Part shown: positions 9,152-45,693 of the stretch, one piece after another | Numbering within the stretch: the first letter of the stretch is position 1 | Layout of the letters: each line of letters starts with the position of its first letter | Assembly (NCBI RefSeq): GCF_015645445.1 | Contig: NZ_JADOGI010000026.1 | Coordinates: 1 to 64,000, forward strand | Length of the DNA stretch: 64,000 nucleotides | Reading direction: 5' to 3' | DNA from: Nonomuraea cypriaca | Lineage (GTDB): Bacteria > Actinomycetota > Actinomycetes > Streptosporangiales > Streptosporangiaceae | The notes under the pieces: model-generated | Databases searched by the model: none | The model's input: the letters and a program-made list of their open reading frames with translations, nothing else | What the model was told of the DNA's origin: nothing | Position numbers and translations under genes: made by a program

Positions 9152-10198
9152 TCAGCCCACCTTCACGTTTCGCATGACGCCGCACGCCTTGGAGTTCTTG
9201 AGCACGACGGCAGCCGGGCCCATCTCCAGCTCGCCGACCTTGACCGCGCCAGCGGTCGTGAAGTCGGGCAGCCACGTGCGCACGAACGGCCGACCCGCGA
9301 CCGTCGCGCCGTGGAACGCATCCAGGCCGAACGTGATCGCGTACAGGTCGGTGACGTTCTCGACCGGGGCAGCGCCGATGGTGCGCTGCTCGACCGGGAC
9401 GATCGGACCCATGCCGGTCGCGGTGTCGCCGGCGTCGATCAGCACCCAATCGCCGTACGTCTCGATCTTGCGGCCAAGGTCGTCCTTGGTGCTCGTGTGC
9501 ATCGACGCCCAGCGCGCGAGAGCACGCAGGCGAGCGATCGAGCGCGTGTTACCGACGATCGCCTTGGTACCGGCCGGGACAGCGCCCGGTGCGGCGGCGT
9601 CGCCCGAGCCGACCCGCGACGGGATGATGCTGGACAGCCACTCGTCGAGCTGGTCCAGTCGCTTGTTCGCCTCGTCCTGCGTGCCGACGCTGGCCGTGCT
9701 CCAGTCGGCGTAACCGGTTTCACCCTCGTCCGGGACGTACTCGGTGGAGCTGCCGACGAGCAGCTTGTCGAGTCCGTCCCAGCCGTTGGTGTCCACGGCC
9801 ACGTCACCGTTGATGATCTTGTTCTGCAGGTCGGTGGTCACACCGACGAGCAGCTGCGACATCTGGAACGAAACCTCGTTCGTCGCGGCCGGGCCGAGGT
9901 CCGAGATCACGCGGTCCACGTCGAACGAGCCACCGAACGGCTTGAGCTGCACCGTCCGGTGCTCGCGCTCGGCCTGGGTGCGCGCGTACTCGGCGTTGAT
10001 CGCACGGAACGCGCCACCCCGCGCCGTCTTGAGCAGGGTGTAACCGTAGGTGAGAGTCCCGCCGCCCGCGCCGGGCGTCACGGCGTCGTCCCAGACCATC
10101 TGATCGGCCAGCCACGAGTACCGGCGCAGCGTGTCGATCACCGCGTGATCGATGTCGTCGCGGGCGTTGATCTGCGCCATCGCAAGAGTGATAGCCAT
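9152..10198 (-). CDS. Major capsid protein
   Basis: A 348-residue protein beginning MAITLAMAQINARDDIDHAV. It has the features of HK97-fold capsids of actinophages: helical start, NAEYARTQAEREHRTVQLKP then FGGSFDVDRVISDLGPAA, a central ATNEVSFQMSQ helix, and a C-terminal beta region (FHGATVAGRPFVRTWLPDFT). It follows the scaffold gene by 8 bp and forms the icosahedral shell. Size is within the usual 300-400 range. Confidence 0.92.
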   Translation of the reverse strand: MAITLAMAQINARDDIDHAVIDTLRRYSWLADQMVWDDAVTPGAGGGTLTYGYTLLKTARGGAFRAINAEYARTQAEREHRTVQLKPFGGSFDVDRVISDLGPAATNEVSFQMSQLLVGVTTDLQNKIINGDVAVDTNGWDGLDKLLVGSSTEYVPDEGETGYADWSTASVGTQDEANKRLDQLDEWLSSIIPSRVGSGDAAAPGAVPAGTKAIVGNTRSIARLRALARWASMHTSTKDDLGRKIETYGDWVLIDAGDTATGMGPIVPVEQRTIGAAPVENVTDLYAITFGLDAFHGATVAGRPFVRTWLPDFTTAGAVKVGELEMGPAAVVLKNSKACGVMRNVKVG

Positions 10199-16090: not shown

Positions 16091-16362
16091 GTCGGCGCCC
16101 CCGTGCTGCCTGTGCGCTCGGGCCAGTGCCAGGTGCCGCCGCGGTGCTCGTCCTCGCTCTGGAGAATGGCCCGGTTGAAGTGCAGGCCCTCCGGGTTGAA
16201 GACGGCGAGGTTGACGTGCCCGACGAACTGGCCGCCCGGCCCGTGCTGATAGGTGTCCACCTCGGTCACCACCGCCGCCCGGCACACGCTCGGGTACTCG
16301 CCGCCGGGGGTGCCGTACGAGACGTAGTGGACGATGCGGCCCACGCTCGGGGTTGGCGTCAT
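16087..16362 (-). CDS. Small actinophage protein near terminase
   Basis: A 91-residue protein from ATG at 16362, overlapping the terminase stop (ATGA). It begins MTPTPSVGRIVHYVSYGTPG, then GEYPSVCRAAVVTEVD and VNLAVFNPEGLHFNR. Proteins with this pattern are very common in actinobacterial prophages and appear to be small beta-rich folds. The function is not known to me. Confidence 0.78.
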   Translation of the reverse strand: MTPTPSVGRIVHYVSYGTPGGEYPSVCRAAVVTEVDTYQHGPGGQFVGHVNLAVFNPEGLHFNRAILQSEDEHRGGTWHWPERTGSTGAPT

Positions 16363-17648
16363 GCTGCGGGCTCCAATCGCGCTTGGGCGAGCCGTGAGCG
16401 CCATACCTGCTGCGTGGTCTGGATGGCGTAGCGCATGGCGTCGAGCCCGTGGTCATCGGCCTTGATCGGGGAATCCTCACCGCGCTCGGCGGCTTTCTCA
16501 TCCCACGAGTAGCCGGGGAACTCGTTGATGAGCGCCGTGCACGACTCGTGGACGAACAGGCGGCGAGTCGCGAGCAGCGACGCGACGGTGCGAATGCCGG
16601 GCAGCACGGTGTTCTCGCCGAGCACTGATCGGACGCCGTCGCCGTGGAGCTGGATGCGGAAGCTCGCCGCGCTGGGGTCTACCACCGTGTAGCGCGGCGA
16701 GATGCCGGTCAGGTCGGTGCCGTAGACGGGCGCGGTCGAGAGCCAGGTGCGTAGGCGTTCGCTGTACTCGACATCGGTGAGTTGGCGGCGGCCGATCTTG
16801 CTGTCGTAACGGTATTCGTGCGTCAGGTAGAGGCGGCTGTCCGCGCCGAGTCCGAGGATCGTCGCGTGGAAAGGGTTCGTCGTGCCGTAGTCAATCCCGG
16901 TGCTGATCCACTGGTCGATGCGCGGCAGCTCGGCGACGACATGCGTGTCTGGGTCCCACGAGTCGTAGACGACGCCCTCGGCGAGACACCATTCGCCGGC
17001 CACGAAACGCCGATACCAGAGGCCGGTGTACTGCGCTTTGAGCCGATCGACGTAATCCGCGGTGAGGCTCGGGTTGTCGTCGAGCGTGAAATGCCAGTGA
17101 CGCATCCCCACCTCGGGGGCGCGCAAGATGAACTCGCGCCGCATCCAATGGCCGGGGCCGTCCGGGTTGGTGGTGGCCAGCAGCTTGGCGCCAGCGACGC
17201 GCAGACGCGAGAGCAGCATCATCCAGAACGAATGCGGCACCAGCGTGGCCTCGTCGACGTACGCCAACGCCACGGTTGCGCCTCGGATGCGGCCCTCCGC
17301 GCGGGTGTCGGACGCGCCCACCAGGTGCACCGTGCGGCCGAGAATGACCGCAGTCGTGCTGCCGGTGGTGTGATGCACCTGGGCGGCGAGCGGGCCGAAG
17401 AGTGCCGGCGACTGGAGCGGGTCGATCAGGTTGCGCTCGATCGTCTGCAACGTTCTGCCAACGACGACGATCAGCCCCGAGTCTGGGGCGGCAGCGACGG
17501 CGATCAGGAACGCCAACAGGCTGGCGATCGTCTTGCCGGACGACACCGCCCCAGACCAGAGCGCGAGCTGTGGCGTATCCATCGCGCCAACGATCGAGCG
17601 GATCTGCTTGGGCGAGAGCACGGCAGTCACAGCGTCGAGGCTGATCAT
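16359..17648 (-). CDS. terL: Terminase large subunit
   Basis: A 429-residue DNA packaging motor. The ATPase part has the Walker A-like SGAVSSGKT (about residues 32-40) and Walker B VALAYVDEA (about 126-134), then LLATTNPDGPGHWMRREFIL coupling motif. The nuclease part has GIDYGTTNP (about 250) and the C-terminal DDHGLDAMRYA with its metal-binding Asp residues. It overlaps the small subunit gene by 4 bp. It cuts and packages phage DNA with the portal. Confidence 0.95.
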   Translation of the reverse strand: MISLDAVTAVLSPKQIRSIVGAMDTPQLALWSGAVSSGKTIASLLAFLIAVAAAPDSGLIVVVGRTLQTIERNLIDPLQSPALFGPLAAQVHHTTGSTTAVILGRTVHLVGASDTRAEGRIRGATVALAYVDEATLVPHSFWMMLLSRLRVAGAKLLATTNPDGPGHWMRREFILRAPEVGMRHWHFTLDDNPSLTADYVDRLKAQYTGLWYRRFVAGEWCLAEGVVYDSWDPDTHVVAELPRIDQWISTGIDYGTTNPFHATILGLGADSRLYLTHEYRYDSKIGRRQLTDVEYSERLRTWLSTAPVYGTDLTGISPRYTVVDPSAASFRIQLHGDGVRSVLGENTVLPGIRTVASLLATRRLFVHESCTALINEFPGYSWDEKAAERGEDSPIKADDHGLDAMRYAIQTTQQVWRSRLAQARLEPAA

Positions 17649-18986: not shown

Positions 18987-19715
18987 TCATGCCTGCGACG
19001 CGAACGCGCCGACGACCGTCCACGAGTGCCAGCGGAACAGCACCTCGGGCGACTGCCAGCCCGCCGCCTCGATCGTGTCGACGAGCGACTGTGGCGACTG
19101 CGGCCGCAGGACGCCGCGCAGCGATCGAGCCTTGGCCCTGATCGCCGAATCGCTGATCCCGTGCGCCGCCTTCACGTCGTGCGAGGCGTCGTTCGCGATC
19201 TCGGCCCAACGCGAATCACGCGCCCGGACTTTCTCGGCGACGATCAGCGCCCCGGAGTCGTGCGAGTGCGCGCGAGCGAGCCGCAGCGCGTCGAGCCGCT
19301 CGTGCAGCGGCAAGAACTGGAGCGTAAACAAGCTGATCGTCAGATCGGCGTTCTCGTGCGCGAGCGGCGCGTCTTGGATGCGCGCCACGTGGTAGCCGAT
19401 AGAACCGCCCGCGAGCGGCTCTAGATCGACGCGAGCGCGATCAAGCATCGCCGCCTGATCGTCGTATAGGGCGAACCTGATACGCCGCTCACGCTGGCGC
19501 TCAAGGATGCGCCGGGCGGTCGTCCCCGTGGACGCGCCCAGGTCAGCGACAAGGCCACCCGCCGGCACGAGCCAGTCCGCAGCCTCGGCGACAAGGTTCT
19601 GTATGTCGTCATAGAACGGCACCGACGCGCGCACGTGCTCGTCGAACACCTGCACCACATCCGGGGTGAACTCCCAGCCGCCGGTATCGAACTGCTCGGC
19701 GATGTCCACGCTCAC
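18987..19715 (-). CDS. CmoA-like carboxy-SAM synthase homologue
   Basis: A 242-residue Rossmann SAM-binding protein, GTG start overlapping the methyltransferase stop (GTGA). It follows the CmoA pattern along its whole length: WEFTPDVVQVFDEHVRASVP at the start, motif I VADLGASTGTTARRI (55-70), LYDDQAAMLDRAR, ISLFTLQFLPLHERL (128-141), LIVAEK (157-162), then HDVKAAHGISDSAIRAKARS with Arg197 near where CmoA has its prephenate-binding Arg. CmoA makes carboxy-S-adenosylmethionine from SAM and prephenate for tRNA modification. No CmoB is nearby; instead its partner is a DNA methyltransferase. That pairing is the odd and informative part. It could still be an ordinary methyltransferase. Confidence 0.8.
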   Translation of the reverse strand: MSVDIAEQFDTGGWEFTPDVVQVFDEHVRASVPFYDDIQNLVAEAADWLVPAGGLVADLGASTGTTARRILERQRERRIRFALYDDQAAMLDRARVDLEPLAGGSIGYHVARIQDAPLAHENADLTISLFTLQFLPLHERLDALRLARAHSHDSGALIVAEKVRARDSRWAEIANDASHDVKAAHGISDSAIRAKARSLRGVLRPQSPQSLVDTIEAAGWQSPEVLFRWHSWTVVGAFASQA

Positions 19716-20791
19716 GCGCTCACCACCTTGGCGAGAATCTCGTCGCGCACCGTGGCGGCGACGTGCGCCATCATCACGGGCGGCACGGCGCGGCCGATGC
19801 GCTCCCACCTGTGGCGGTAGAGCCCCGTCAGCTCGAAATCGTCAGGGAACCCACCGATGCGGCGCAGCTCGGCCAGCGTCAGATATCGCGGCTGGTCGGG
19901 CATCGTGATCGTGGCAGTGCCGTCACCGCCGCCCCTGGCGACGATCGTCGCCGCAGGTCGATCCCAGGCCATGCGCGTGAGGCTCGTTCGCTTGGGGTGG
20001 CACTTGCCGGGCTCCAGCTCGTGCCAATACGGCTCGATCGAGTAGCCAGCGAGCGGGAGGCGTTGCCCCGTCTCGGGGTCGTGCTCGATCAGGTCGAACG
20101 CGCCGGGCAGGTCGCCGATCGCGTCGCGCAGCGTGTAGCGATACGGCAACGGCGTCGGGTGCGCGGGGTCCGCAGCAAGGTCGTTGCGAACGCCTACGAA
20201 GATGATGCGCTTCCGGGCCTGGGGGACGCCGAGCCAACTCGCGTCGAGCAGCCGGGCCGTCACCTTGTAGCCGGCGTCGCGCAGGGCGGCGAGGATCATC
20301 AGGAAGTAGCCCTTGGCCTTGCCGATGACGAGCCCGCTGACGTTCTCGGCGACGAACGTGCGCGGCTGCAACCCCTTGAGCAGGCGCGCGTACTCGAAGA
20401 ACAGATCGTCGGTGCGCTGCTTGGTCGAGCTGTACGCCTTGACCTGGCCCCACCCGGCCTCGCGCTTGCCGGCGGTCGAGAACGACGCGCACGGCGGCGA
20501 GCCGTCGAACAGGTCGATCTCGCCGACGTCGAGCCCGGTCGCGTTCAGGATGTCGCCTGGGGCGACCTCGCGAATGTCGCGGGTGTCGAGCTGGGTGTAT
20601 GCGCTCGCGTTGGCGCGGTACGTGTCGGCGGCGGCGGGGATGAACTCGCTCGCCCAGGCGACGCGGAACCCTGCCATGCGGTAGCCGAGCGAACTGCCCC
20701 CACACCCGCTGAAGGTGCTGACGGCGGTGTAGCCGTTCCATGGGATCGCGTTGATCTCGCCCATGCTGGGCACGCGGTAGGCGGGCTTCAC
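19712..20791 (-). CDS. DNA cytosine-C5 methyltransferase with atypical motif X
   Basis: A 359-residue C5-methyltransferase read from GTG at 20791, which overlaps the preceding small gene's stop (GTGA). Motif I is VSTFSGCGGSSLGYRMAGF (24-42), motif IV GSPPCASFS with catalytic Cys101, motif VI VAENVSG, motif VIII QARKR, and motif X ERIGRAVPPVMMAH near the C-terminus. Almost all members have Asn in IGNAVPP; here residue 334 (CGC, 19790-19792) is Arg. An Arg or Lys in the cofactor pocket is expected to favour the extra carboxylate of carboxy-SAM. Neighbour CmoA homologue fits. Likely substrate is phage or host DNA; the recognised sequence is unknown. No restriction gene is present. Confidence 0.93.
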   Translation of the reverse strand: MKPAYRVPSMGEINAIPWNGYTAVSTFSGCGGSSLGYRMAGFRVAWASEFIPAAADTYRANASAYTQLDTRDIREVAPGDILNATGLDVGEIDLFDGSPPCASFSTAGKREAGWGQVKAYSSTKQRTDDLFFEYARLLKGLQPRTFVAENVSGLVIGKAKGYFLMILAALRDAGYKVTARLLDASWLGVPQARKRIIFVGVRNDLAADPAHPTPLPYRYTLRDAIGDLPGAFDLIEHDPETGQRLPLAGYSIEPYWHELEPGKCHPKRTSLTRMAWDRPAATIVARGGGDGTATITMPDQPRYLTLAELRRIGGFPDDFELTGLYRHRWERIGRAVPPVMMAHVAATVRDEILAKVVSA

Positions 20792-20940
20792 TGGGCGGCT
20801 CCCGACCAGCAGTAGAGACAGTAGGGGCAGCGGTACTGCACCGGGATCGTCTCGTCGTAGATGGGGAACTCGGCCGGGGGCGTGTCCGGGGCGGCGGGGT
20901 TCTTCTGGTGGTTCTCGGGATCGCCGCTGGTTGCGGTCAC
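20788..20940 (-). CDS. 50-residue zinc-knuckle-like protein
   Basis: GTG at 20940 with a GGGAGGGG ribosome site. The protein is Pro/Glu-rich with a C-terminal RCPYCLYCW cluster (three Cys) that could bind zinc or pair with a partner. Its stop overlaps the methyltransferase start by 4 bp, so the two are translationally coupled. It may help target or stabilise the methyltransferase. Too short for confident family assignment. Confidence 0.68.
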   Translation of the reverse strand: MTATSGDPENHQKNPAAPDTPPAEFPIYDETIPVQYRCPYCLYCWSGAAQ

Positions 20941-20955
20941 GTCCCCTCCCTTCGG

Positions 20956-21189
20956 TTAGGCGGCTTGGCGCAGCTCGTCGCGCTCGTGCGCGGTGGTGGG
21001 GACGCGCCGGCCAGTGCGTAGGCACAGCTCGATGGCGGCGAGGTCCCAAAAGTCGTAGTAGGCGCTGCGGCCTGTGCGTAGGAGCCGGCGCGCTCGGTAG
21101 CGGTGCGCCCAGACGCCGAGCGTCGAGCGGTTCACGTCGAGTCGTTCGGCTGCGTCGGCGAGCGTGATGGGCTCGATGGGGTGGCGCAT
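20956..21189 (-). CDS. Helix-turn-helix protein heading the DNA-modification operon
   Basis: A 77-residue protein from ATG at 21189 (MRHPIEPITLADAAERLDVN). It has a MerR/Xis-type DNA-binding helix-turn-helix (ADAAERLDVNRSTLGVWAHR, then YRARRLLRTGRSAYYDFWDL). It is first in the leftward unit with the zinc-knuckle, methyltransferase and CmoA-like genes, 15 bp before the next. It may autoregulate the operon. The longer frame to 21264 lacks a ribosome site. Confidence 0.75.
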   Translation of the reverse strand: MRHPIEPITLADAAERLDVNRSTLGVWAHRYRARRLLRTGRSAYYDFWDLAAIELCLRTGRRVPTTAHERDELRQAA

Positions 21190-39027: not shown

Positions 39028-40608
39028 ATGCCGTTTACCGAAGAACGCAACGGCCGATGGCGGGTGAGATGGAGGCTCCCCGCCGGCAACTACGCCTCGG
39101 CTACTTATGACGAGTACGGCGCGCCCTTCCCCGACGAGGAGAGCGCCCGCGCCTACGGCCTCAACATGGAGGCCGACATCCGGCGAGGCATCTACAAGGA
39201 CCCGCGAGCGGAACAGCTCACGTTCCGCGAGTACGCCGAGGACTGGTATCGGAACCTGGACTTGGAGCGGTCCACGACACAGAGCTACCGCCGCATGCTG
39301 CGCGGGCACATCATGGCGGCGTTCGGGCATCTCGCCCTGGTGAACATCACGCCCGACATCGTGAACCGGTGGGAGCGCTCGGTCGTCGCGGCCGGGTACG
39401 CGATCAGCACGGCCAGGACTGCCCGCGCGGTGTTATCGAGCGTGCTCGACGACGCCAGGCGGGCGGGGCGCATCGCCTCCAACCCGGCCGAGAAGCCGCG
39501 CGGGAAGGGCCGCAAGGCAGACCGCAGGATCGAGGTGTTCGAGCAGGCGGCGAAGGTGTGGCCGTCGCCGTTCGAGGCGATCCTGATCGGCGAGCGAATC
39601 GCGCTGCTGTCCGGGCGCGAACGCGATTTCGTGATGGTCTTGCTCGCCGCCTGGACGGGCCTGCGCTGGTCCGAGCTGCTCGCGCTCACCCCGTCCTCGC
39701 TGGACGAGCGCGGGCGGCTCAAGGTGCATTGGAAGCTGTACGAGGATGACGGCCGCTGGTACTGGGGCCGTCCCAAGGACGGCAGCATGCGCATCATCGA
39801 CCTGCCCGAGTGGCTGTGGGAGATGGTGCGGGCGATCCGGCCGCGCCGGTGCGGCTGCCCGAAGGATGCCGCCGCCCCGTTCTGTCAGGGGCGCGAGGTG
39901 CTGTTCCTCGGCGAGCGCACGCACCACCGCCGCTCGGCGTTCTCGCGCCTCTACCTGCGCCCGGCCGCCGAGGGCGTCTATCCGACCAAGGGCAACGCCC
40001 CGGTGCTCGCCGACGCGGCGACGAGCTGGCCGGGCGAACCGCTGGCGTCTTGGCCGGCGGCCGTGCCCGGCGTCGCGTACGAGCCGCCGCTGCTGCGGCG
40101 GATCGCCCGCCAGACGCCGGGGCAGGTGAACGCGAGGTCTCAGCGGGCCGAGCTGGTGGCGTACGCGATCGAGCAGGGCGCGGACGAGCAGCTCGTCGCG
40201 CGCATGTCGCGTGAGGCGCTGATGGACGCCTACCTGCGGCCGCGCGCCGATGGGCTGGTGTCGTGGCTGCCGATCCTGCCGGACTTGACCATGCACGGTC
40301 TGAGGCACGCGCATCAGACGTGGATGGACGACGGCGCGATTAAGACGGCGCTCAAGGTCGAGCGGATGGGTCACACCGATTACACGATCTCGGCTCGTTA
40401 CGGACATGTGACCGACACGATGCGGGGCGAGTTGCTCGATCTGCTCACCGCGCTACGTGATGAGGCGCTGCGGCGGCGCTGGGAGCTGTCGCCGCGCTCG
40501 TCGGTGCGCGTCTTGGATGACGCGCTGGCGGGTATCGGGAGCCCTGTTGTCGCTCCCCTGTTCTCCCAGAATTCTCCCAAAACGCAGAGAGCCCGTCTCA
40601 CCGGGTGA
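39028..40608 (+). CDS. int: Tyrosine-recombinase phage integrase
   Basis: A 526-residue integrase. The N-terminal AP2-like arm-binding domain (MPFTEERNGRWRVRWRLPAG) and SAM-like core-binding domain (TFREYAEDWYRNLDLERSTT) precede a catalytic domain with Arg in AAWTGLRWSELL, HxxR in MHGLRHAHQTW, His in RMGHTDYTI, and Tyr in SARYGHVTDTM. An insertion of about 80 residues lies in the catalytic domain. It inserts the prophage at the adjacent tRNA-Thr. Length is at the upper end for the family. Confidence 0.95.
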   Translation: MPFTEERNGRWRVRWRLPAGNYASATYDEYGAPFPDEESARAYGLNMEADIRRGIYKDPRAEQLTFREYAEDWYRNLDLERSTTQSYRRMLRGHIMAAFGHLALVNITPDIVNRWERSVVAAGYAISTARTARAVLSSVLDDARRAGRIASNPAEKPRGKGRKADRRIEVFEQAAKVWPSPFEAILIGERIALLSGRERDFVMVLLAAWTGLRWSELLALTPSSLDERGRLKVHWKLYEDDGRWYWGRPKDGSMRIIDLPEWLWEMVRAIRPRRCGCPKDAAAPFCQGREVLFLGERTHHRRSAFSRLYLRPAAEGVYPTKGNAPVLADAATSWPGEPLASWPAAVPGVAYEPPLLRRIARQTPGQVNARSQRAELVAYAIEQGADEQLVARMSREALMDAYLRPRADGLVSWLPILPDLTMHGLRHAHQTWMDDGAIKTALKVERMGHTDYTISARYGHVTDTMRGELLDLLTALRDEALRRRWELSPRSSVRVLDDALAGIGSPVVAPLFSQNSPKTQRARLTG

Positions 40609-40623: not shown

Positions 40624-40631
40624 GAGCTGGG

Positions 40632-40705
40632 AGCCGCCTTGGGGATTCGAACCCCAGACCCCTTCATTACGAGTGAAGTGCTCTGGCCGACTGAGCTAAG
40701 GCGGC
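40632..40705 (-). tRNA. tRNA-Thr(CGU), phage attachment gene
   Basis: Minus-strand cloverleaf: acceptor GCCGCCT/AGGCGGC, D arm AGCTCAGTCGGCCAGAGC, anticodon arm CTTCA-CTCGTAA-TGAAG with anticodon CGT, T arm CTGGGGTTCGAATCCCCAA. Discriminator base T at 40632, CCA not encoded. Its 3' end faces the integrase, marking the integration site. Confidence 0.95.
40633..40680. other. Probable right attachment site (att core region)
   Basis: The T arm to anticodon part of tRNA-Thr next to int. The core usually lies here and restores the tRNA. The second copy is outside the window, so limits are not known. Confidence 0.6.
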
Positions 40706-41799: not shown

Positions 41800-44700
41800 T
41801 CAGGACGTCTGCGGCTCGACGTCGCGACTGACGCGCTGCCAGTCCCGCAACGCCCTGGTGCACGGGTGCTCCTCCCCCAGCTTGCCCGCGACGGCCACGA
41901 GCGTGTTCTTCCGCAACTCGCCGGCCTGCGACTCCTGCCCCAGCCCCCGTACGGTGACGGCCAGGTTCGCCTGGCAGGCCAGCGTGTCCGGATGCACCGG
42001 CCCCAGAGTGGCCACCAGCTTCGCCAGGGCATCGCGCTCCATGCGCTCAGCCGTCTCCAGGTCGCCCACCTCGGCGGTGCAGTTCGCCAGGTTGATCGCG
42101 CAGGACAGCGTGAACGGATGATCCCGCCCGAGTGAGTTGCACATCGCGCTGAAACTACGTTCACTCAGCTCCAGCGCCTCGTCCACACTTCCGAGCCCGC
42201 GCACGTACACGGACAGGTTGTTCGCCGCGGCTGACGCGTAAGGATGCTCCGCGCTGAGCAGTTCCTCGTAGCCGGCCAGCACGACGGCCGTCATGTCCCT
42301 GGCGCCCGCCAGATCGTCCATCGCGGACATGCAGCAGGCCAGCTCAAGCGCGGCGGCCTTGCCCTCGGGGTCGGACGGGTACAGCCGGCGGTAGCGCCCG
42401 TAGATGTCGCGGGCCAGCAGGATGGCCTCCTCGTGCTGCCCGGCCCTGCGCAGCGACACGGCGAGGCTCTTCGTGGCGCGCAACGCCTCGGGATAGTCGT
42501 CGAAGCTCAGGTCGGAGTACTGCTTGAGGGTCTGGCGGAGCAGCTCGATCGAGCCCTCGAGATCGCCGGCCTCGCGCATGTCACGGCCGAGGTTCTGGGC
42601 GGAGAGCAGGGTCGAGGGGTGGGCGGGGCCGAGCACGGTGATCATGCGACGGTAGATGTCGTCGTCGAAGTCCTTCGCGTTGCGCCAGTCACCGACGAGC
42701 CGGTACGACACGGCCAGGTTGTTCGCCGCCCGCAGCGTACGCGGATGGTCCTCGCCGTACATCTCCTGCCAGCGCTCGTACACCTGTCTCTCCTGCGCCA
42801 GCGCCTCGGCGTACATGCCGAGGACCCGCAGGTCGGCGGCGATCCCGCCGGCGGTCATCAGGGTGTGCGGGTGGTTGTCGCCGAGCAGGTCGCGCTGCCG
42901 GGTCCAGACCCACTGCTCCAGCTCGTACGCCTCCTGCAACCGCCCGAGCGACCGCTGGACGTTCGCGATGTTCGTCAGCAGGTGCAGCCGCTGCCGCTCC
43001 AACTGGTCGAACTCCTGCTCCCAGAAGTCCGCCAGTCGCTGACCGAGTTGCAGGGCGTTGTCGTACTCGCCGCGTTTCCACCAGTACCGCACGCGTTCGG
43101 TGAGGAGCTGCCTGACCTCCTCCTCGCCGCAGTTCTCGGCCCCCGAGGGCAGCAGGTGCGGCCAGATCAGGTCGTAACGCTCCCAGTTCTCCGGATCGTC
43201 CACCTCACCCTGCCGCGGCCGGGCGCCGACCAGAATGCGGTGCACCTCGTGCGCGACGGTGACCCGCTCCTCCTCCGTCATGTGGCCGCGGATCACGGCC
43301 TGGACGAGGCGGTGGACCTGCAGGGTGTTGCTGCCCTGGTCGATCTTGGCGAGCGCGAACCTGCTGATCTCCCTGATGACCCGGCCGAGTACCAGCTTCT
43401 CGCCGCGTAGCGCCTCGTCGAACGGCAGCAGCACCTTCATGGTCTCGTCGCTGTAGAGGAGCGAGAGCGAGATCGGCTCTGGTGAGAAGAAGGCGCACAG
43501 TTGCAGCAGCCGTTCGGCGGCCGGGGAGCGCTGCTTGAGCTGGCTCAGGGAGACGTTCCATGTCGCGGCGACCGGGCTCGGGTAGTCGGCGGGCTGGTTG
43601 ACGGACAACACCGCGGCCGTCTGGTGGTGCAACTCCTCGACATAGCTGGCCGCCGACTGACCGGTCTCCCCCAGCCAGGCCGCCGCCTGCTCGACCGCGA
43701 GCGGCAGGTAGCCGAGCTCCTCCGCGACGTGCAGGGCGTCGTGCGGGTCCAGCCTGGGCACCCTCCTCAGCAGGTGCTCCAGGCTCTCCTCCCGGCTGAA
43801 CACGTCGACCTCCAGCGGGGCCGCCACGCTGGACCAGGTGGGATTGCGCGAGGTGACGATGACGTGGCCGCCGCCGCTCGGCACGTAGTCGCGCAGGTCG
43901 TCGGGCTCGTCGGCGTTGTCGAAGATCAACAGCCAGCGCCCGTACGGCTGCCCCCTGCGCAGCGCCTCGCGGGCCGCCTCGGCCGCCTCGACCACGCTGT
44001 CGCCGACCGGGAGCCCCAGGCGGCGGGCCAGCTCGGCCAGCGTCGGGTTGATCAGCTCGGGCTGCTCCGCGGGCACCCACCAGACCACGTCGTAGTCGGC
44101 CATGAACCGGTGCGCGTACTCCAGCGCCACCTGCGTCTTGCCGACGCCGCCGAGCCCGTACAGTGCCTGCGGGAGCACCACCGCCTGGCTGCTGCCGACG
44201 AGCTGGTCCCTGAGCGTTTCCAGCGCCTTGTCACGCCCGGTGAAGGCGGCGTTGCGCGGCGGGACGTTCCAGACGGCGGGGGCGCCGCCGGGGAAGCGGG
44301 CGCCCGCGACGGCGGTGGCGTCGAGCACGTATCCGGGCTTGCCGACCGCGCGCAGGACCGCGTCCACGGCCTGCGCCGGGCCGAGCCGCATGAGATCGAC
44401 GGTCTGCTGCTCGCTGAAGGGCGGGATGAGCCGCAGGTCGCCCGCCACCCGCAACGCGGTCATGTCGGGGAGCGCGCTCAGGTCGTCGGCCAGGTTCTCG
44501 GCGCGGAAGTCCTGTAGGTAGGCCGCGGACAGCACGATGACGATGGGGGAGGCGTCGCCGAGCCGGCGGTCGCCGGCCTCGTTCGCCGCGGACAGCGCCT
44601 GGGGGGTGACGTAGAAGTTCGCGAGCCGCAGGATGGCCGCGATCCAGTCCGCCCACATGCGGTCCTCGGGCGCGTAGCTGAGCAGGACCTCCTGCCGGAG

Positions 44701-45693
44701 CACCGTCTCCTTGCGGGTGAACGCCTCCAGCCAGCGCAGCCGGACCGGCTCCGCCATCGCCGGCAGCCCGGTGACCTCGCCCTGCGTGATCGCGCCGGTC
44801 AGCCGTTCGTACGCGGCCAGCATCGACCCCGGCGACCCCGGCGTGTCCCCGAACGTGGCCAGCGTCTCCTCAAAGGCATAGAAGCGCTTGTACGGGACCT
44901 CCGTCGCCGCCCAGTACTGATCACGCTCATCCGGGGTCATCCCCACAGGAAAACTCTCGAACCGGGCACGGGCGTAACTGCGCCCGGCGTCGACCTTCTT
45001 CTTCTCCCCGTCGTCCACCCGCATCGGCACCGGCAGGATGCGGATGTCGCGGTCGCCGTGCCGCTCACTGATCGACCACGCGACCTTCGAGGCGCCGTCG
45101 ATGCTCTGGTCGCTCATCGTGAAGCAGTCGACCAGGACGTCCGGCATCTGAATGGTGCAGATGTCGGCGATGTCGCTGAGACCGGTCCTGCTGTCGATCA
45201 GGCAGTAGTCGTAGTTGCGCTTGATGTCCTCGCGCAGGGCGTCCAGGAAGCGGCCGCCGCCGAGCCGGTCGTAGAAGGTGTCCCAGTCGAAGGCGGACAC
45301 GAGCGAGGAGTAGTCGCGGTTCTGCTGACCGGCGGAGACGAAGTCGAGCGTGCCGCTCTTGGGGAACGTCCACTCCAGAGACACCGCGTGCGGGATCACG
45401 CTGGCGTACTCCAGATGCCAGTCGCGGTCCCGCTGCCGCGAGACCGTGGCGGCCCATCGGTACTCGTTGACGATGTCGATCACCCCGGTCGTCGCGCTGA
45501 TCACGCTGTCGTCCAGGAAGGGGCGGAAGAAGCGGTGCAGTCCGGGCGATTCGAGGTCCCAGTCCATGGTCAGCACACGCTGACCGTTGCTCGCCATGAT
45601 CCAGGCGACGTTCGCCAGCGTCATGGTGCGCCCGGTGCCGCCCTTGTAGGAGTAGAACGTGATGATCTGGCCGTCATTCCGGTCGGTTGTCAT
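41800..45693 (-). CDS. fxsT: FxSxx-COOH system P-loop/TIR/NB-ARC/TPR protein
   Basis: A 1297-residue multi-domain protein. Residues about 5-300 hold a ParA/MinD-like ATPase ([20 protein letters not shown]). Residues about 330-430 are TIR-like ([20 protein letters not shown] ... VIVLSAAYL). Residues about 480-760 are an NB-ARC STAND NTPase ([41 protein letters not shown]). The rest is a long TPR array ([20 protein letters not shown] type repeats). It is the standard partner in fxs RiPP clusters and overlaps fxsC by 20 bp. The layout is that of a sensor that switches on by nucleotide-driven oligomerisation. Actual role unknown. Confidence 0.92.

What the first reader, a model, noticed from the sequence alone, without database searches (positions are those of the whole stretch)
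18987..21189. Possible natural 5-carboxymethylcytosine DNA modification system
Seen: a coupled operon of a DNA cytosine-C5 methyltransferase and a homologue of CmoA. The methyltransferase motif X reads ERIGRAVPP with Arg334 where the family almost always has Asn (IGNAVPP). Known: CmoA makes carboxy-SAM from SAM and prephenate; and, as I recall, an engineered C5-methyltransferase (M.MpeI with one active-site Asn changed to Lys or Arg, N374K/R) accepts carboxy-SAM and makes 5-carboxymethylcytosine. Whether that Asn is the motif X Asn should be confirmed by alignment. Inference: the phage encodes its own carboxy-SAM supply and a methyltransferase adapted to use it, giving a charged cytosine modification that could block restriction or CRISPR. 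I do not know of a described natural system, but could not search.
Basis: partly seen in the sequence, partly recalled or inferred. Interest (0 to 1): 0.93.

Follow-up and report, generated by a model that had tools for sequence, protein, structure and literature searches.

The report
Prophage cytosine carboxymethylation genes, ligase lost
A bacterial prophage carries two overlapping genes that likely let it write carboxymethyl groups onto cytosines in its own DNA, a phage modification reported in December 2025, but its contig lacks the amide-adding ligase gene that its closest relatives carry, so its DNA would likely keep the bare, charged base.

Summary
Window 18987-19715 (-) encodes a CmoA homologue and 19712-20791 (-) a C5-cytosine methyltransferase with Arg at motif X (IGRAVPP); the genes overlap by four bases.

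New here: (1) a co-occurrence test: among related MTases with readable motif X, 110 of 116 Arg clusters have CmoA nearby, 0 of 58 others do. (2) This module lacks the ligase; a prophage of the same bacterial genus has ParB-CmoX-ligase-CmoA in the same slot beside the terminase, and the tree places the window among ligase-bearing relatives. (3) ParB is reduced to its Cys-rich tail, a 50-aa ORF overlapping CmoX. (4) No second CmoA was found in the host, so the prophage likely needs its own.

Most likely the prophage makes bare 5cxmC, a state not found in native S-B43 DNA. No chemistry was measured here. The prophage's left end is missing from the contig, so a ligase there is not excluded.

The parts
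18987..19715 (-). cmoA homologue: predicted carboxy-SAM synthase
   Evidence: phmmer to E. coli CmoA 4gek E 3e-21; AlphaFold2 model pLDDT 89, best PDB match 4gek TMq 0.84; 26% identical to proven SpCmoA
19712..20791 (-). cmoX homologue: predicted DNA cytosine C5-carboxymethyltransferase, GTG start, GTGA overlap with cmoA
   Evidence: PF00145 E 8.2e-53; best solved relative 8yf3 = SpCmoX, E 6.9e-64; model pLDDT 92, best PDB match 8yf3
19790..19792 (-). codon of Arg334 (motif X, ERIGRAVPP); equivalent of SpCmoX Arg350 and HhaI Asn304
   Evidence: alignment to 8yf3 and HaeIII; role of Arg350 from PMC12783734
20489..20491 (-). codon of the catalytic Cys (motif IV, GSPPC)
   Evidence: alignment to the SpCmoX GSPPC
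20788..20940 (-). 50-aa ORF equal to the Cys-rich C-terminal tail (EFPxYDExIPxxYxCPxCxYxWSG) of the ParB-like protein found upstream of cmoX in relatives; GTGA overlap with cmoX
   Evidence: phmmer with TurkishDelight gp122 E 1.3e-8 over its residues 153-195; sequence
20956..21189 (-). small HTH-like ORF upstream; membership of the operon uncertain
   Evidence: HTH_23 below its cut-off; MerR-like PHROG E 3.5e-4
16359..17648 (-). terminase large subunit of the same prophage (context)
   Evidence: PHROG terminase E 2.4e-42; 55% identical to the syntenic terminase in G039
39028..40608 (+). tyrosine integrase of the prophage (context)
   Evidence: Pfam Phage_integrase over its cut-off; PHROG integrase E 6.5e-46
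40630..40705 (-). tRNA-Thr(CGT), likely attachment site of the prophage
   Evidence: ARAGORN, 21 bases from the integrase gene; no att duplication shown

Best explanation
This is a two-gene CmoA-CmoX module of a prophage, predicted to put carboxymethyl groups on C5 of cytosines in the phage's DNA: CmoA likely turns SAM and prephenate into carboxy-SAM, and CmoX, whose motif X has Arg where ordinary cytosine methyltransferases have Asn, likely transfers the carboxymethyl group. Shown here: the genes, their overlap, the Arg, the homology to the proven S-B43 enzymes, the tight co-occurrence of Arg with CmoA in a sample of relatives, the lack of a second detectable CmoA in the host assembly, and the absence of a detectable Asn-synthetase-type ligase from the contig. 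Inferred: the activity itself, the DNA sites modified, and that the product stays as bare 5-carboxymethylcytosine because the ligase was lost in this lineage. The likely benefit is protection from host restriction; in the published work 5cxmC blocked HhaI cleavage in vitro.
For: CmoX: 41% identical to SpCmoX and 65% to Streptomyces phage TurkishDelight gp123; best sequence and fold match in the PDB is SpCmoX 8yf3; Cys of SPPC, Glu of ENV and Arg at motif X are kept. CmoA: best sequence and fold match is CmoA. Co-occurrence: 246 loci fall into 180 clusters at 90% identity; 6 clusters are unread or misread at motif X. Of the other 174, 116 have Arg and 110 of these have CmoA in the fetched flank; 58 have another residue (42 Met, 15 Asn, 1 Leu) and 0 have CmoA. 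One of the six Arg exceptions has CmoA elsewhere on its contig. Host: a search of the whole genome with the window CmoA found only itself. Ligase: no Asn_synthase match on this contig, and no hit of two ligase profiles in the window or the rest of the contig. The same-genus prophage in G039 has the ligase between CmoX and CmoA beside a 55%-identical terminase. Tree: window joins G039 and L036 (100*); the next branches (L161, support 83; the Streptomyces-type group, 86) also carry ligases. Biochemistry of the homologues: PMC12783734.
Against: Nothing was measured in this prophage. E. coli CmoA Arg199, which salt-bridges the carboxylate (PMC3663124), aligns with Ala here; but the proven SpCmoA has Glu there. 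The window CmoA scores 101 bits against the 193-bit cut-off of NCBI's CmoA model TIGR00740; proven SpCmoA also fails it, at 116 bits. The co-occurrence is between related sequences: on a tree only 4 well-supported independent contrasts remain, mostly concordant but short of significance (median p 0.125). Five Arg clusters have no CmoA on the record held. ParB is reduced to its tail, which could also mean decay. The prophage's left end lies beyond the contig, so a ligase there cannot be excluded.
Confidence: 0.83

Rival explanations
1. The module makes 5cxmC, but another enzyme (encoded in the missing left arm of the prophage, or by the host) amidates or otherwise finishes it, so bare 5cxmC is only an intermediate, as in S-B43.
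For: In S-B43 native DNA only the glycine amide was seen, not 5cxmC (PMC12783734). The contig starts inside the prophage's tail genes, so the left arm is missing. The host genome holds other Asn_synthase proteins (6 matches on 5 contigs).
Against: In G039 and TurkishDelight the ligase sits between CmoX and CmoA, a slot that here is closed by a 4-base overlap. The host asparagine-synthetase proteins score 404 bits or less on the GATase-type phage-ligase profile, against 550-722 for 43 phage loci and 672 for G039; two ligase pieces cut by contig ends (L183, L186) score 402-422, and the CmoY type scores far lower on this profile, so the score alone is not proof. The 404-bit host protein lies among host-type genes, judged by eye. 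83 ligase-less Arg+CmoA loci show no recurrent alternative ligase among the ten commonest neighbour families within 4 kb.
Confidence: 0.3
2. The module is decaying: the ParB domain and the ligase are gone and the remaining enzymes are no longer used.
For: ParB is reduced to a 50-aa tail and the ligase is absent, while both are present in the sister prophage G039.
Against: Both enzyme genes are full length with the tested motifs, third-position G+C is high as in neighbouring genes, and the three ORFs overlap tidily by GTGA. 64 of the 112 clusters tabulated as Arg+CmoA (two of them misread) lack a detected ligase in the fetched flank, so the two-gene form is common.
Confidence: 0.1
3. An ordinary orphan 5-methylcytosine methyltransferase beside an unrelated SAM-binding enzyme.
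For: Ordinary C5-MTase profiles match well (TIGR00675 over its cut-off; PADLOC type II MTase).
Against: Motif-X Arg, tied to CmoA in relatives (110 of 116 clusters). SpCmoX with this Arg accepts only carboxy-SAM, and R350N accepts neither donor (PMC12783734). CmoA is adjacent and overlapping.
Confidence: 0.04
4. CmoA serves tRNA modification (cmo5U) during infection, and its position beside the MTase is incidental.
For: PHROG annotates the family as 'tRNA methyltransferase', and CmoA's known cellular role is in tRNA.
Against: The Arg/CmoA co-occurrence across phages and the overlap of the genes; S-B43 has CmoA and no CmoB (PMC12783734). CmoB was not searched for in the window's host.
Confidence: 0.03

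Closest known systems
CmoA-CmoX-CmoY of Synechococcus phage S-B43 (Yang et al. 2025, PMC12783734; PDB 8YF3)
   Same: CmoA homologue plus C5-MTase homologue with SPPC Cys and motif-X Arg; phage-borne; 41% (CmoX) and 26% (CmoA) identity
   Different: No CmoY ligase found on the contig; CmoX and CmoA overlap directly; integrated prophage; recognition site unknown (S-B43: GC)
Streptomyces phage TurkishDelight gp121-125 and the G039 prophage
   Same: CmoX 65% and 73%, CmoA 63% and 67-70% identical; same neighbourhood type; G039 also has a 55%-identical terminase beside it
   Different: Both have ParB-like protein(s) and a ligase of the glutamine-amidotransferase/Asn-synthetase type between CmoX and CmoA; the window has only the ParB tail and no ligase there
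Engineered M.MpeI N374K carboxymethyltransferase (cited in PMC12783734)
   Same: Basic residue replacing an active-site Asn lets a C5-MTase use carboxy-SAM (as cited there)
   Different: Engineered, prefers CG, Lys instead of Arg; not aligned here
E. coli CmoA/CmoB tRNA cmo5U pathway
   Same: CmoA fold and predicted carboxy-SAM synthesis
   Different: DNA C5-MTase in place of CmoB; Arg199 of E. coli CmoA not kept

Membership tests
Phage CmoX (DNA cytosine C5-carboxymethyltransferase) | C5-MTase fold with SPPC catalytic Cys | tested here: met
   PF00145 E 8.2e-53; GSPPC kept; 8yf3 best fold match
Phage CmoX (DNA cytosine C5-carboxymethyltransferase) | Arg at the motif-X position equivalent to SpCmoX Arg350 | tested here: met
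   ERIGRAVPP aligned to ERVGRMVPP of 8yf3
Phage CmoX (DNA cytosine C5-carboxymethyltransferase) | CmoA encoded in the neighbourhood | tested here: met
   Overlapping cmoA gene; 110 of 116 Arg clusters have CmoA
Phage CmoX (DNA cytosine C5-carboxymethyltransferase) | Transfers carboxymethyl from carboxy-SAM, not methyl from SAM | not testable with these tools
   Needs an enzyme assay
CmoA (carboxy-SAM synthase) | Overall homology and fold of CmoA | tested here: met
   E 3e-21 to 4gek; Foldseek best match 4gek, TMq 0.84
CmoA (carboxy-SAM synthase) | Arg199 contacting the carboxylate (E. coli numbering) | tested here: not met
   Ala in the window; but Glu in the proven SpCmoA, and Arg in only 34 of 180 aligned sequences, so it does not define the phage branch
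CmoA (carboxy-SAM synthase) | NCBI equivalog cut-off TIGR00740 (193.3 bits) | tested here: not met
   101 bits; proven SpCmoA 116 bits and TurkishDelight 90 bits fail it too
CmoA (carboxy-SAM synthase) | Makes carboxy-SAM from SAM and prephenate | not testable with these tools
   Needs an enzyme assay
Complete CmoA-CmoX-CmoY hypermodification system | Asn-synthetase-like ATP-dependent ligase (CmoY) in the locus | tested here: not met
   No PF00733 match on the contig; two ligase profiles without a hit in the window and the rest of the contig; the prophage's left arm is not on the contig
Restriction-modification system | Companion restriction endonuclease | tested here: not met
   None recognised among the prophage genes scanned; not every ORF was scanned

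The most novel reading that the evidence does not exclude
A natural phage genome whose finished DNA carries bare, negatively charged 5-carboxymethylcytosine: an ancestor had the ParB-CmoX-ligase-CmoA module, this lineage deleted the ligase and trimmed ParB to its Cys-rich tail, and the tail survives as a 50-aa microprotein that still serves CmoX. With the G039 prophage of the same genus as ligase-bearing control, it is a ready-made pair for asking what the amide adds.
Probability: 0.45. Interest if true: 0.6.

Novelty: new member of a known kind. Interest (0 to 1): 0.47.

Why it matters
The natural 5cxmC pathway was reported in December 2025 from a cyanophage whose native DNA showed the glycine amide and no 5cxmC. 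This window adds a prophage in a bacterium in which no other CmoA was found, and gives a pair of related modules (with and without ligase) in one genus. The Arg-versus-other comparison at motif X supplies a negative control that a search restricted to Arg-bearing sequences cannot: in the sample, relatives with Asn or Met had no CmoA nearby. If the bare base is confirmed, one can ask directly whether carboxymethylation alone protects phage DNA and what amidation adds.

Tried and rejected
Megablast of window 10000-34000 against 50,697 phage records: no match. Evaa gp2 as a CmoX: rejected, aligns poorly (20%), and PF00145 finds no C5-MTase in the 61-kb record. C125 of the same genome as the prophage's missing left arm: rejected; it carries a 57-base copy of the tRNA-Thr end beside what look like genes of another integrative element (read by eye, no family search). 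C10's asparagine synthetase as the missing ligase: rejected on host-type neighbours, judged by eye, and 404 bits on the phage-ligase profile. The Cys-rich tail as a mark of the Arg type: rejected; the same or a similar tail is found upstream of Asn-, Leu- and Met-type MTases. Direct alignment with M.MpeI: not done; it is not named among the PDB matches at E 1e-5. Geometry of Arg residues in the CmoA model: not measured.

Rows dropped and corrections. One search tabulated 112 Arg clusters with CmoA, 6 Arg without, 60 others without and 2 unread (Fisher p 6e-41, treating clusters as independent). On rechecking, two of the 112 (L034, L035; broken ORFs that do not show motif X, both with a CmoA hit, that of L035 weak) and two of the 60 (L259, L291; misaligned column; L291 reads Asn) were misread. 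I leave them out with the 2 unread: 174 clusters remain. One locus, L168, reads Ala there because its ORF breaks before motif X; it has CmoA and falls in the Arg cluster of L126. For the tree, 27 of 42 Met clusters, the 2 unread clusters, and L034 and L035 were left out. One search gave an earlier count (141 clusters, 124 Arg with CmoA, 5 without) that included loci found by CmoA similarity and named phages; it is not used.
Full report
Observation. On the minus strand the window holds a C5-cytosine MTase (20791-19712) and a CmoA homologue (19715-18987); the TGA stop of the first lies inside the GTGA that starts the second. The MTase matches PF00145 with E 8.2e-53 and the CmoA homologue matches E. 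coli CmoA with E 3e-21. Motif X reads ERIGRAVPP; the Arg stands where HaeIII and DNMT1 have Asn and where SpCmoX has Arg350.

Setting. The window starts at base 1 of contig C179 (69,682 bases) of an unnamed 11.5-Mb genome. Tail, head, portal and terminase genes run leftwards from about 18 kb. Replication-type, RusA, ERF, YqaJ and repressor-type genes follow to the right. An integrase lies at 39028-40608, 21 bases from a tRNA-Thr. I read it as an integrated prophage whose left arm lies beyond the contig end; the two att copies were not shown.

Prior art. Searches for carboxymethylcytosine, carboxy-S-adenosyl with phage and cytosine, CmoA with prephenate, N374K, 5cxmC, and CmoA with ParB and bacteriophage (listings only, in a library without preprints and most subscription journals) lead to one paper on this system: Yang et al., Nat Commun 2025, PMC12783734. 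I read parts 1 to 3 of 8 of its text (abstract to the start of Methods). It shows carboxy-SAM synthesis by SpCmoA, 5cxmC formation by SpCmoX, contact of Arg350 with the carboxymethyl group, loss of activity in R350N, resistance of modified DNA to HhaI, glycine ligation by CmoY, and 5gcxmC but not 5cxmC in native phage DNA. It lists 5,615 CmoX candidates selected for Arg350, with 4,257 CmoA, 2,251 ligase and 1,660 ParBc sequences in their contigs.

Relation to it. Window CmoX is 41% identical to SpCmoX and 65% to TurkishDelight gp123; window CmoA is 26% and 63% identical to the corresponding proteins. AlphaFold2 models (pLDDT 92 and 89) have 8yf3 (CmoX with Cx-SAM) and 4gek (CmoA) as best PDB matches. 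E. coli CmoA Arg199 (PMC3663124, passages read) is Ala here and Glu in proven SpCmoA, so its absence does not count against the function. The same holds for the TIGR00740 cut-off.

Co-occurrence test. Loci were gathered by MTase similarity, not by CmoA: 246 loci, 180 clusters at 90% identity. Six clusters are unread or misread at motif X, leaving 174. Arg: 116 clusters, 110 with CmoA in the fetched flank, 6 without. Other residues: 58 clusters (42 Met, 15 Asn, 1 Leu), 0 with CmoA. Clusters are not independent. On a tree built without the motif-X columns there are at least 7 changes between Arg and other residues, but only 4 well-supported independent contrasts; over 200 pairings CmoA goes the same way in 3.7 of 4 on average and never the other way (median p 0.125, not significant). 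Of the six exceptions, L108 has CmoA elsewhere on its 79.5-kb contig; the other five lie on records of 5.6-36.8 kb without a match.

Ligase. Of the 112 clusters that one search counts as Arg+CmoA (two misread), 48 have a ligase within the fetched flank and 64 do not. Among 83 ligase-less loci the ten commonest neighbour families within 4 kb are the CmoX/CmoA genes themselves, ParB-like proteins, terminases, a few other phage-type proteins and ORFs that look antisense (named by eye); no other ligase type stands out. One of 35 other genomes of the genus, G039, has a relative, in a syntenic prophage: ParB-like protein, CmoX (73%), ligase of 470 aa (672 bits on the phage-ligase profile), CmoA (67-70%), terminase (55%). 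In a CmoX tree of 47 rows the window joins G039 and L036 with full support; the next branches, L161 (support 83) and the Streptomyces-type group (86), all carry ligases, while a branch further out (L048) lacks one. Loss of the ligase in the window's lineage is the simplest reading.

ParB tail. In relatives the protein upstream of CmoX is ParB-like (so annotated in TurkishDelight) and ends in a CPxCxYxWSG tail; most of the tail-bearing ORFs are 150-300 aa, but 9 of 210 are under 100 aa, some of them next to contig ends. In the window only that tail remains, as a 50-aa ORF overlapping cmoX by GTGA. The same or a similar tail occurs upstream of Asn-, Leu- and Met-type MTases, so it likely serves the MTase in general, perhaps as a docking segment. 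This is inference.

Supply. A whole-genome search with the window CmoA finds no second copy in the host assembly. The published work could use E. coli's own CmoA; this prophage likely cannot borrow one.

Judgement. The module fits the published CmoX kind in each sequence feature tested. It is not filed under the complete CmoA-CmoX-CmoY system, because the ligase was looked for on the contig and not found. Its most interesting prediction is bare 5cxmC as end product. Activity, sites and end product are untested.

Noticed in passing
L003 (Gordonia phage Evaa 702-2237 and 3236-3952), L198, L202: CmoA homologues near a ParB-N-domain methyltransferase with no C5-MTase found in the record (Evaa complete 61 kb, L202 56.6 kb, L198 12.3 kb): candidates for a carboxy-SAM user other than CmoX. 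Distant relatives of that MTase occur in Pseudomonas SM1-like phages, which are not among the 62 records with CmoA hits, so the link is weak. L183 and L186 also show no C5-MTase, but they are cut just beyond a ligase.
   Followed up: partly
most loci (L221-L287): A third motif-X class: phage C5-MTases with Met (GMSVPP) in place of Asn, 65 loci in 42 clusters, none with CmoA in the fetched flank; 55 of the 65 have a ParB-like neighbour. Why Met is favoured is unexplained.
   Followed up: partly
Phage CmoA alignment, E. coli position 199: The carboxylate-binding Arg199 of E. coli CmoA is Arg in only 34 of 180 aligned sequences (Glu in 96, Ala in 38); Lys198 is kept in 179 of 180. The phage branch must hold the carboxylate differently.
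   Followed up: partly
window 41800-45693 (-): 1297-aa protein with P-loop, TIR-like, NB-ARC and TPR domains next to the tRNA-Thr; residues 7-194 match PADLOC PDC-M28B with E 3.7e-22: looks like a signalling or defence ATPase.
   Followed up: no
L308 (G000:C125) about 10042-10098: 57-base copy (93%) of the tRNA-Thr end in another contig of the same genome, beside a GntR-like gene and others that look like a separate integrative element using the same att site.
   Followed up: partly
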